DNA of 17,741 nt from an uncultured Panacagrimonas sp. (lineage in GTDB: Bacteria; Pseudomonadota; Gammaproteobacteria; Nevskiales; Nevskiaceae). The position numbers were made by a program, and so were the translations under genes. Under the pieces are notes generated by a model. It did no database searches, had not been told where the DNA came from, and saw only the letters and a list, made by a program, of their open reading frames with translations. Every line of letters starts with the position of its first letter. Within the stretch, counting starts at the first letter, position 1. Shown in pieces: positions 5,698 through 13,004 of the stretch. The DNA lies in contig CAMLNE010000043.1 of the NCBI GenBank assembly GCA_946481265.1, positions 1 to 17,741 of the forward strand, given 5' to 3'.

Positions 5698-8180
<2,483 letters not shown>

Positions 8181-8275
8181 GGTCTGCGCGCACGGTGATC
8201 GCCGCCACTTGCGCGAGCGCGGCAAAAGCGGAAGCATCGGTTCCCCTTTGATTCGACGAGCCGGGAGCCGCGACC

Positions 8276-8914
8276 ATGAAGCTCTACAACTGGCAATTTG
8301 CACCCAATTGCCGTCGCGTGCGCATGTTCATGCTGGAAAAGGGACTCGATCTGCCGGCGATCGAGGAGGTCATCGGCAGCGGGCTGCGCCTGCTGCCGCA
8401 GTATGTCGATACCTGGCCGCATGCGATGGTGCCGATGCTCGAACTCGACGACGGCACGCGCATCGGCGAGGCGATGGCGATCTGCCGCTATCTCGAGGAC
8501 GAGTACCCGGAGCCGAACCTGATGGGCCGCGACGGCCGCGAGAAGGGCCTGGTCGAGATGTGGGAGCGGCGCGCCTACGACGAATGCATGATCGGCACCG
8601 CGGAAGTGTTCCGCAATTCGCATCCCGAGTTCGTCGATCGGGGGATTCCGGGAACCACCGAGCCGGTGCCGCAGATCCCGCAGCTGATCGAGCGCGGCAA
8701 GGGCCGCGTGCGGCGCTACTACCGCAAGATCGAAGCGCAACTCCGCGACAACCGCTTCATCGCCGGTCCGCGCTTCTCGGTGGCCGACATCACCACGCTG
8801 TGCTCGGTGGATTTCGCACGTGCCGTCGACATGCCGATACCGCCGGACTGCAAGGGCGTGGCGCGCTGGCACGAGGAAATCTCGGTACGGCCAAGCGCAC
8901 GGAGCAGTCTCTAG
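8276..8914 (+). CDS. Glutathione S-transferase family protein
   Basis: The 212-residue protein is a cytosolic-type GST. The N-terminal thioredoxin-like domain reads 'KLYNWQFAPNCRRVRMFM', with 'MVPMLELDDGTRIGEAMAIC' (about 53-72) carrying the cis-proline and the glutathione gamma-glutamyl site (E-A in place of the usual E-S). The helical C-terminal domain ends with 'FIAGPRFSVADITTLCSVDFA' (about 162-182), the conserved N-capping motif. The first strand has no clear catalytic Tyr, Ser or Cys; N13 and C14 are nearest. The ATG at 8276 begins the conserved first strand. The halohydrin dehalogenase-like gene starts 5 bp after the stop, so the two are almost certainly one operon. GSTs commonly conjugate epoxides and halides, which would fit that partner, but no substrate can be read from the sequence. 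Confidence 0.9.
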   Translation: MKLYNWQFAPNCRRVRMFMLEKGLDLPAIEEVIGSGLRLLPQYVDTWPHAMVPMLELDDGTRIGEAMAICRYLEDEYPEPNLMGRDGREKGLVEMWERRAYDECMIGTAEVFRNSHPEFVDRGIPGTTEPVPQIPQLIERGKGRVRRYYRKIEAQLRDNRFIAGPRFSVADITTLCSVDFARAVDMPIPPDCKGVARWHEEISVRPSARSSL

Positions 8915-8919
8915 TCGCC

Positions 8920-9603
8920 ATGGACCTGATCTCGCTCAAGGGCAAGCGCATCCTGCTCACGCAGGCCGCCGAATTCATGGGGCCCACCCTGATCCCACTG
9001 CTCACGCAGCTCGGCGCGACCGTGATCGTGGACGACCGCGCACTGACCGATCCTGCCCTGCCCGCCGAACTGGTGCGCACCGCGGGCCACGTCGATGTGC
9101 TGATCGCCCACCTCGGCTCGCCGCGCCAGCAGCTGCTGGTCACCGAGGGCACCGAGGAGGACTGGCGCTCGATGTTCGCCGAGCTGGTCGATCCGCTGCC
9201 GCGCCTGGCGCGCGCCGTGCTGCCGCAGATGATCGAGCGGCGCTCGGGCAAGATCCTGGTGATGGGCAGCGCCGCCGCGCTGCGCGGCATGAAGCGCACC
9301 TCGTCGTACAGCGCGGCGCGCGGTGCGCAGCTGGCCTGGGCGCAGGCGGTGGGCGTGGAGATGGCGCCGCACAACATCCAGGTCAATGCCATCGCGCAGA
9401 ACCTGGTCGACAACCCCACCTACTTCCCGCCGGAAGTGCAGGCGCTGCCGAAGTTCAAGGAGCGCATCAAGTGGGAGGTGCCGCTGGGGCGGCTGGTCTC
9501 CGCGCAGGAGGACGCGCACTTCGCCGCCTATCTGTGCAGCGAGGCGGCGAACTGCTTCGTCGGCCAGGTGTTCCCGGTGTGCGGTGGCTGGGTGCCCCGA
9601 TAG
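8920..9603 (+). CDS. Halohydrin dehalogenase-like protein (SDR fold)
   Basis: The 227-residue protein has the short-chain dehydrogenase fold but not its chemistry. Where an SDR has the glycine-rich NAD(P) loop, it reads TQAAEFMG (T14, F19, G21), the T-X4-F-X-G pattern of halohydrin dehalogenases, in which an aromatic residue fills the cofactor site. The SDR Tyr-X3-Lys is replaced by Y130-SAA-R134, and S117 lies 13 residues before Y130, giving exactly S-X12-Y-X3-R. The stretch 'NLVDNPTYFPPE' and the ending 'VGQVFPVCGGWVP' correspond to the halide-site loop and C-terminus of HheC, as recalled from that family. These enzymes close vicinal halohydrins to epoxides and open epoxides with halide, azide, cyanide or nitrite, without a redox cofactor. 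The ATG at 8920 is 5 bp after the GST stop. No strong ribosome-binding site is visible, which suggests translational coupling. The natural substrate is unknown, and the subtype cannot be set by eye. Confidence 0.85.
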   Translation: MDLISLKGKRILLTQAAEFMGPTLIPLLTQLGATVIVDDRALTDPALPAELVRTAGHVDVLIAHLGSPRQQLLVTEGTEEDWRSMFAELVDPLPRLARAVLPQMIERRSGKILVMGSAAALRGMKRTSSYSAARGAQLAWAQAVGVEMAPHNIQVNAIAQNLVDNPTYFPPEVQALPKFKERIKWEVPLGRLVSAQEDAHFAAYLCSEAANCFVGQVFPVCGGWVPR

Positions 9604-12253: not shown

Positions 12254-12649
12254 TCATCCGGTCGATGGTCCAAGCAAGGGCAGCACGAACGCAAACAGCG
12301 CGCCGATCGTGATGGCCAGCGCCGATGCGAACCACAGGCCCGCGCTCCAGCGCCGCAGCCGCGTGCAGGCTGCGGCCAGGCGCGGATCCACCGGGCAAGG
12401 CAGCATCCGCGCGCGCCACAGCGCGCCCCCGGACAGCGCCAGCATGACCGCCGCCAGGCCGAAGACCCAGGCCTTGTGCGCGGACAGCCACACCAGCTGG
12501 GGCACCGCCGTCACCAGCCCGGCAAGCGCGGCGCCGGCGCCCAGCGCCACCATCACCGCCGGCAGCACGCAGCACACCAGGGTGCCGCTGCCGGCCAGCA
12601 GGGCAAGCAGGGAGAGGCCGAGGTTGCGTCGCAGCGGCGCGTCAGTCAC
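12254..12649 (-). CDS. MerT-like heavy-metal transport membrane protein
   Basis: The 131-residue protein has about four hydrophobic segments. The cysteine layout copies that of the mercury importer MerT: a vicinal pair C26-C27 in 'TLVCCVLPAVMVALGAG' of the first helix, and two more cysteines, C85 and C95, in the loop after the next helices ('LPCPVDPRLAAACTRL'). In MerT these pass metal from periplasm to cytoplasm. The start is GTG at 12649, overlapping the stop of the upstream CxxC protein by 8 bp (GTGACTGA), so the two are translationally coupled, like merT and merP. No merR or merA is visible, so mercury may not be the substrate; copper or zinc are alternatives. ybbP follows after 63 bp. 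Confidence 0.75.
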   Translation of the reverse strand: MTDAPLRRNLGLSLLALLAGSGTLVCCVLPAVMVALGAGAALAGLVTAVPQLVWLSAHKAWVFGLAAVMLALSGGALWRARMLPCPVDPRLAAACTRLRRWSAGLWFASALAITIGALFAFVLPLLGPSTG

Positions 12650-13004
12650 CGGCGCCGTCCGACTTCTTGCCGACCCGCGCGCGGATCTCGTCGAGGGTCG
12701 CCTCGCTGCGTTCGATCTGCACCGTGGTGTAGCCGGCCCCGGTGACCGCGGCGGTCAGGTCGGCGTCCGCGATGTCCTGGCCGTCGACCAGTTGCACCGC
12801 GACCAGGCGGTTCTCCAGGCTGACGAAGACGTCATGCGCCGCCGGGAACTTGCGGATGCTCTTCTGGATGCCCTGCGCGCAGAAGGCGCAGACCAGGCCG
12901 TTGACCTCCATCTCCACGCTGCGGGCGCTGGCCGAGGCAGCAAAGCCCAGCAGCAGGGCGCACAGCGCGGCGGACATGAAGCGGGTGTTGTGGAAGCGGT
13001 TCAT
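12642..13004 (-). CDS. Periplasmic heavy-metal-associated (MerP-like) protein
   Basis: The 120-residue protein has a signal peptide (about 1-27, 'SAALCALLLGFAASASA') followed by a heavy-metal-associated domain. The metal site is GLVCAFCAQGI with C39 and C42, one turn of the CxxC type, and the fold continues to 'VTGAGYTTVQIER' near residue 95. A charged tail ends the protein. It probably binds one soft metal ion in the periplasm and hands it to the MerT-like protein encoded just downstream, which overlaps it by 8 bp. The motif is not the GMTCAAC of true MerP, so the metal is uncertain. A GGAG sequence lies about 9 bases before the ATG. The putative outer-membrane protein gene ends 15 bp upstream. 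Confidence 0.82.
   Translation of the reverse strand: MNRFHNTRFMSAALCALLLGFAASASARSVEMEVNGLVCAFCAQGIQKSIRKFPAAHDVFVSLENRLVAVQLVDGQDIADADLTAAVTGAGYTTVQIERSEATLDEIRARVGKKSDGAGD

What the first reader, a model, noticed from the sequence alone, without database searches (positions are those of the whole stretch)
8920..9603. Hidden halohydrin dehalogenase: an 'SDR' with the full dehalogenase signature
The sequence shows T14-X4-F19-X-G21 in place of the NAD(P) glycine loop, and S117-X12-Y130-X3-R134 in place of Ser-Tyr-Lys. Both patterns are the established diagnostic motifs of halohydrin dehalogenases, and both fit with exact spacing. The halide-site region (NLVDNPTYFPPE) and C-terminus also fit. 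The family is small and most members are annotated as SDR oxidoreductases, so this is probably an uncharacterised member in a genome with no obvious link to halo-organic degradation.
Basis: partly seen in the sequence, partly recalled or inferred. Interest (0 to 1): 0.8.

Follow-up and report, generated by a model that had tools for sequence, protein, structure and literature searches.

The report
Ordinary D-type halohydrin dehalogenase gene
The gene most likely encodes a cofactor-free enzyme that turns haloalcohols into epoxides and back, a clear but ordinary new member of a known and now very large enzyme subfamily that automatic annotation files as an oxidoreductase.

Summary
The 227-residue protein at 8920-9603 (+) carries both published halohydrin dehalogenase (HHDH) motifs with exact spacing and neither SDR motif. 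It is 65% identical to HheD2 (PDB 7b73), 44% to HheB and under 29% to the 13 cofactor SDRs compared, and lies inside the D-type clade (support 99/98). None of 30 SDRs from the related Panacagrimonas perspica has both motifs. I file it as a D-type HHDH from Panacagrimonas or a close relative: a new member of a known kind. 'Small family' is out of date: 5,142 protein clusters match a D-type query at E<=1e-90. Its physiological role stays open. No neighbouring gene family recurs in more than 7 of 78 loci. Here a glutathione transferase gene ends 5 bp upstream, kept in two relatives: a possible epoxide sink. The oddest thing lies beside the target: natural relatives with Trp or Met/Val at motif 1's aromatic position, the Trp group also changed at Q160; a 2025 paper calls that motif highly conserved in nature.

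The parts
8920..9603 (+). D-type halohydrin dehalogenase, 227 aa
8959..8982 (+). Motif 1 T14-X4-F19-X-G21 (nucleophile pocket, in place of the NAD(P) glycine loop)
   Evidence: role from PMC11976700 passages
9268..9321 (+). Motif 2 S117-X12-Y130-X3-R134 (catalytic triad)
   Evidence: mechanism from PMC4989007 section 4
9400..9435 (+). Loop N161-E172 (NLVDNPTYFPPE), inferred further wall of the halide pocket by alignment with solved HHDHs
   Evidence: alignment; conservation; placement is inference
8276..8914 (+). Glutathione transferase family protein, 212 aa, ends 5 bp before the HHDH start; possible partner
6684..8180 (+). Flavin amine oxidase-family protein (start by my gene caller; longest ORF starts 6609); upstream of HHDH in all three Panacagrimonas loci fetched

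Best explanation
The gene encodes a D-type halohydrin dehalogenase. S117 holds the substrate hydroxyl. Y130, its pKa lowered by R134, takes the proton. The alkoxide displaces the neighbouring halide to form an epoxide. The leaving halide sits in the pocket built from motif 1 (T14, F19, G21) and the N161-E172 loop, where SDRs bind NAD(P). The reverse reaction opens epoxides with halide, azide, cyanide or nitrite. Shown here: the residues, their conservation and the phylogenetic placement. Inferred from characterised relatives: fold, lack of cofactor, chemistry. Unknown: the natural substrate.
For: 312.6 bits to 7b73 (E 1.8e-92) and 289.7 bits to 8xxb over nearly the full length, against 172.4 for HheB and 72.8 for the best FabG. 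PMC9629495 names 7b73 as HheD2, a halohydrin dehalogenase (passages). Identities 64.9%, 61.2% and 44.1% to 7b73, 8xxb and HheB, against at most 28.7% to the 13 SDRs in the tree; D clade of 36 rows on one side of a branch with 99/98 support; SDRs apart with 100/96. Exact motifs; 0 of 30 control SDRs with both. Catalytic residues identical in 80 of 80 genome relatives. Mechanism and motif definition from PMC4989007 and PMC11976700.
Against: No assay and no structure model. Pfam and NCBIfam file the protein only under SDR families; the 25 of 174 NCBIfam models shown all lie far below their cut-offs. By score alone the A/C/G-type HHDHs (60-79 bits for most) are no closer to it than FabG is, so the case rests on the D and B relatives, the motifs and the tree. 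No epoxide hydrolase was recognised among the window genes scanned. HheB, the HheC variant and several SDRs are long branches and the bootstrap had not settled, so their attachment is rough.
Confidence: 0.93

Rival explanations
1. A cofactor-dependent SDR oxidoreductase, as databases label it, that resembles HHDHs by convergence.
For: Where a source names one of the 120 listed relatives, the name is SDR family oxidoreductase, 2-keto-3-deoxy-L-fuconate dehydrogenase, NAD(P)-dependent dehydrogenase or the like; Pfam adh_short_C2 matches at E 3e-27.
Against: The Pfam match starts only at residue 46 and leaves out the cofactor loop; glycine motif and Tyr-Lys pair absent; tree and identities place it with D-type HHDHs.
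Confidence: 0.03
2. HHDH fold and chemistry in vitro (so not exclusive of the best explanation), but the cellular reaction is something other than haloalcohol dehalogenation: opening or closing an epoxide with another anion, or another detoxification.
For: No neighbouring gene family recurs in more than 7 of 78 loci. D-type genes also occur in Desulfatitalea, recalled by me as anaerobic sulfate reducers (L025, L045, L067). The 2016 review says only two HHDH genes then known sat in an operon with an epoxide hydrolase and other physiological functions cannot be excluded (PMC4989007, passage). Staar et al. 2025 say the tested compounds are probably not the natural substrates of HheC (PMC11976700, passage).
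Against: All circumstantial; a free-standing gene fits general haloalcohol detoxification as well, the role predicted for HheC with its epoxide hydrolase.
Confidence: 0.35

Closest known systems
HheD2 (PDB 7b73), D-type halohydrin dehalogenase
   Same: Both motifs, 64.9% identity over 222 aa, NPTYFP loop, GGW near the C-terminus
   Different: About a third of residues; window protein untested
PDB 8xxb (deposited as an SDR)
   Same: 61.2% identity over 224 aa, both motifs in the printed alignment, falls inside the D clade
   Different: No paper on it was seen, so its activity is not known to me from a call
HheB (PDB 4zd6)
   Same: 44.1% identity over 220 aa, both motifs
   Different: Tyr at position 19; outside the D clade
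HheC (PDB 1pwx; variant 3zn2 used in the tree)
   Same: Same motifs and chemistry
   Different: 32.6% identity over 175 aa (3zn2); the review says only HheC of the solved ones has the C-terminal extension with Trp249
FabG-type SDR oxidoreductases
   Same: Shared SDR superfamily
   Different: Glycine-rich NAD(P) loop and Tyr-Lys, both absent here

Membership tests
Halohydrin dehalogenase | Motif 1 T-X4-F/Y-X-G | tested here: met
   T14/F19/G21; definition
Halohydrin dehalogenase | Motif 2 S-X12-Y-X3-R | tested here: met
   S117/Y130/R134; definition
Halohydrin dehalogenase | Absence of the SDR glycine-rich cofactor motif and Tyr-Lys motif | tested here: met
   Neither found in the window protein; 26 of 30 control SDRs have both. 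Against: the loose glycine pattern alone turns up somewhere in 18 of 218 relatives, the strict one and the Tyr-Lys motif in 0 of 218
Halohydrin dehalogenase, subtype D | Phylogenetic placement with D-type enzymes | tested here: met
   Clade support 99/98 with 7b73 HheD2
Halohydrin dehalogenase, subtype D | Identity above the level between subtypes (review: below 30%) | tested here: met
   64.9% to HheD2. HheB at 44.1% shows that the review's figure does not hold strictly between B and this protein
Halohydrin dehalogenase | Nucleophile pocket in place of the cofactor site, homotetramer | not testable with these tools
   Structure job failed, then prediction switched off
Halohydrin dehalogenase | Dehalogenation and epoxide ring opening without NAD(P) | not testable with these tools
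   Needs an assay
NAD(P)-dependent SDR oxidoreductase | Glycine-rich loop and Ser-Tyr-Lys | tested here: not met

The most novel reading that the evidence does not exclude
In one Panacagrimonas lineage the HHDH works in a co-transcribed pair with a glutathione transferase that takes up the epoxide product, in place of the epoxide hydrolase found beside HheC. Around it the D-type subfamily has split into natural clades whose halide pocket is rebuilt (Trp19 with Ala160; Met19), hinting at nucleophiles other than chloride and bromide.
Probability: 0.15. Interest if true: 0.45.

Novelty: new member of a known kind. Interest (0 to 1): 0.2.

Why it matters
The enzyme itself adds one more sequence to a biocatalytically useful subfamily. 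More useful is the pattern around it: D-type HHDHs are far commoner in sequence databases than 'small family' suggests, show no widely shared neighbour gene in the loci examined, and vary at a motif position that database mining treats as fixed. Strict motif mining would miss the Trp and Met/Val groups.

Tried and rejected
Convergent SDR: rejected by tree and motif control. Conserved operon across the subfamily: looked for within 6 genes either side in 78 loci (77 fetched plus the window) with my own gene caller. Apart from HHDH itself, the widest neighbour families occur in 7 loci, all Noviherbaspirillum, Herbaspirillum and an Oxalobacteraceae isolate; some families in 4 loci do cross genera (for example the one in L017, L023, L034, L057), so 'genus-specific' would be too strong. 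The caller missed HHDH in L014, L054 and L065, took a wrong SDR in L075, and misplaced the start in L048, L049 and L079, so 76 of 80 fetched loci are sound; several lie on short contigs. Pfam tally: 79 of 109 operon-like neighbours were scanned, chosen by hand; 25 of 96 families were shown; the commonest was the alpha/beta hydrolase fold, 4 of 79, and whether those are epoxide hydrolases was not tested; GST domains in 2 of 79, one of them L001. Plasmid carriage: the best listed plasmid match is 42% identical, so not D-type level; one record counted in the 60-80% identity band was not among the 15 rows listed. First attempts at the SDR control failed, probably by reading the wrong strand, or found only 14 of 30; one search replaces them. 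Literature on a physiological role: the listings showed no title on it (30 of 8,298, 8 of 8 and 15 of 610 listed); the passages in PMC4989007 and PMC11976700 are what I saw; the other papers listed were not opened for this.

Full report
What is there. The ORF 8920-9603 (+) reads as a 227-residue protein. These are the published HHDH fingerprints T-X4-F/Y-X-G and S-X12-Y-X3-R, as against T-G/A-X3-G/A-X-G and S-X10-14-Y-X3-K in SDRs (PMC11976700, passages; PMC4989007, passages). Neither SDR motif is present.

Control. From Panacagrimonas perspica (G001, the genome of L001) I took the 30 best of 107 PF13561 matches. None of 30 has both HHDH motifs; 26 have both SDR motifs, two of these with a stray motif 1 hit as well; the other 4 lack one or both SDR motifs and have no HHDH motif. 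So the pattern separates this protein from ordinary SDRs in a sister genome.

Relatives. The best PDB matches are 7b73 (312.6 bits) and 8xxb (289.7), then HheB (172.4) and 6a41 (106.3); the other HHDHs listed score 60-79 bits, no better than FabG (72.8), so by score alone only the D and B types stand out. PMC9629495 identifies 7b73 as the halohydrin dehalogenase HheD2 (passages). In a tree of 52 rows the window protein groups with P. perspica L001 (99/82) and L002 (100/95), inside a D clade of 36 rows (99/98) that holds 7b73 and 8xxb; HheB is next, then 6a41 and the HheC variant 3zn2; the 13 cofactor SDRs (13 of the 30 control SDRs) form the other side (100/96). The bootstrap had not fully settled, and HheB, 3zn2 and several SDRs are long branches.

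Host. Nine window proteins around and beside the HHDH are 63-93% identical to, and in the same order as, those of P. perspica DSM 26377 (L001), so the window comes from Panacagrimonas (Nevskiaceae) or a close relative. No whole genome is held for it.

Distribution. A genome scan gave 486 stretches encoding a relative, of which the best 80 were kept; by record titles they are mostly beta- and gammaproteobacteria, with some alphaproteobacteria, 'Deltaproteobacteria', a Polyangiaceae MAG and Desulfatitalea. In the family of P. perspica, 7 of 58 genomes, itself included, have a match at E<=1e-40 (in genomes with many candidates only 50 were scored). With the relative P0063 as query, 5,142 of 7,999 scored candidates pass E<=1e-90; the candidate cap makes this a lower bound. 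HheB scores 172 bits against the window protein, far short of that level, so I infer that these are D-type. 'Small family' is therefore out of date.

Neighbourhood. In the window an amine-oxidase-family gene (ends 8180), a glutathione transferase (8276-8914) and the HHDH (8920) follow one another on the + strand. Both upstream genes are kept in L001 and L002. In L003 no such GST is found, and the amine oxidase stop overlaps the HHDH start (ATGA). L001 has a further gene with a GST_N_2 match just over its cut-off between the two. A search of all fetched loci with the window's GST found no relative beside HHDH elsewhere, though one other of 79 scanned neighbours has a GST domain. Across 78 loci no neighbour family recurs in more than 7, and 26 of 77 fetched loci have no same-strand neighbour within 120 bp. 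The GST partner is thus a trait of part of one genus. That it consumes the epoxide is my inference; bacterial GSTs that open epoxides are known to me from recall only. The 2016 review notes that only two HHDH genes then known sat in an operon with an epoxide hydrolase, and that other physiological functions cannot be excluded.

Variation in motif 1. Among the 120 nearest proteins, 21 fail strict motif 1, all at position 19: 15 Met, 5 Trp, 1 Val. Over all 218 listed proteins from three searches, two of them seeded with a Met19 or Trp19 sequence and so not a random sample: 193 Phe, 18 Met, 5 Trp, 1 Val, 1 truncated; S117 and R134 are kept in 218 of 218 and Y130 in 217, the other being a gap. In the tree, 3 of the 5 Trp proteins were included and form one clade (100/97), sister to the group of the window protein, L001 and L002; 8 of the 19 Met/Val proteins, with locus L004, form another (99/97). 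All 5 Trp proteins also have Ala at Q160 and Ala at D198, which 0% and 1% of the Phe proteins have. Q160 lines up, by my reading of the alignments, with the Pro of HheC's GPNY stretch, recalled by me as Pro175 at the halide site. This may be one ancestral branch, and drift cannot be excluded. Staar et al. 2025 say the motif 1 residues appear highly conserved in natural HHDHs, noting two variants at the threonine (passage). Their list of HheC F12 mutants active in both reactions holds Gly, Ala, Cys, Ser, Gln, His and Tyr, not Trp; F12M could not be made; [quoted passage not shown] Natural Trp and Met groups are thus a fair test case. In the 80 best genome loci 79 have Phe and 1 Val, so in this sample these groups come almost only from the wider protein collection, not from species genomes.

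Mechanism. Ser positions the hydroxyl, Tyr is the base, Arg lowers its pKa; backbone amides and the motif 1 region hold the anion (PMC4989007 section 4). Residue presence is shown; action in this protein is inferred.

Limits. No structure model, no assay, founding paper PMC4249193 not held.

Verdict.

Noticed in passing
P0038, P0040, P0041, P0047, P0052 (relatives of 8920-9603): Natural D-type relatives with Trp at the motif 1 aromatic position, all five also with Ala at Q160 and at D198; the three put into the tree form a clade.
   Followed up: partly
P0063 and 18 other listed proteins; L004: Second natural group with Met (18) or Val (1) at motif 1 position 19; strict motif mining would miss it.
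   Followed up: partly
L003:2519-2522: Amine-oxidase-family gene and HHDH overlap by ATGA, suggesting translational coupling in a relative where no such GST was found.
   Followed up: partly
L001:6379-7173: Extra gene between amine oxidase and GST in P. perspica with a GST_N_2 match just over the Pfam cut-off.
   Followed up: no
window 12254-13004 (-): Small protein with an HMA domain (over the Pfam cut-off; the MerP model stays below its own) next to a 131-aa protein with no Pfam or NCBIfam match; looks like a MerP/MerT-type metal pair.
   Followed up: no
window 8047-9603 (+): The HHDH frame stays open upstream through the GST gene (518 codons), an annotation trap; the start at 8920 is supported by the length of relatives.
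   Followed up: yes
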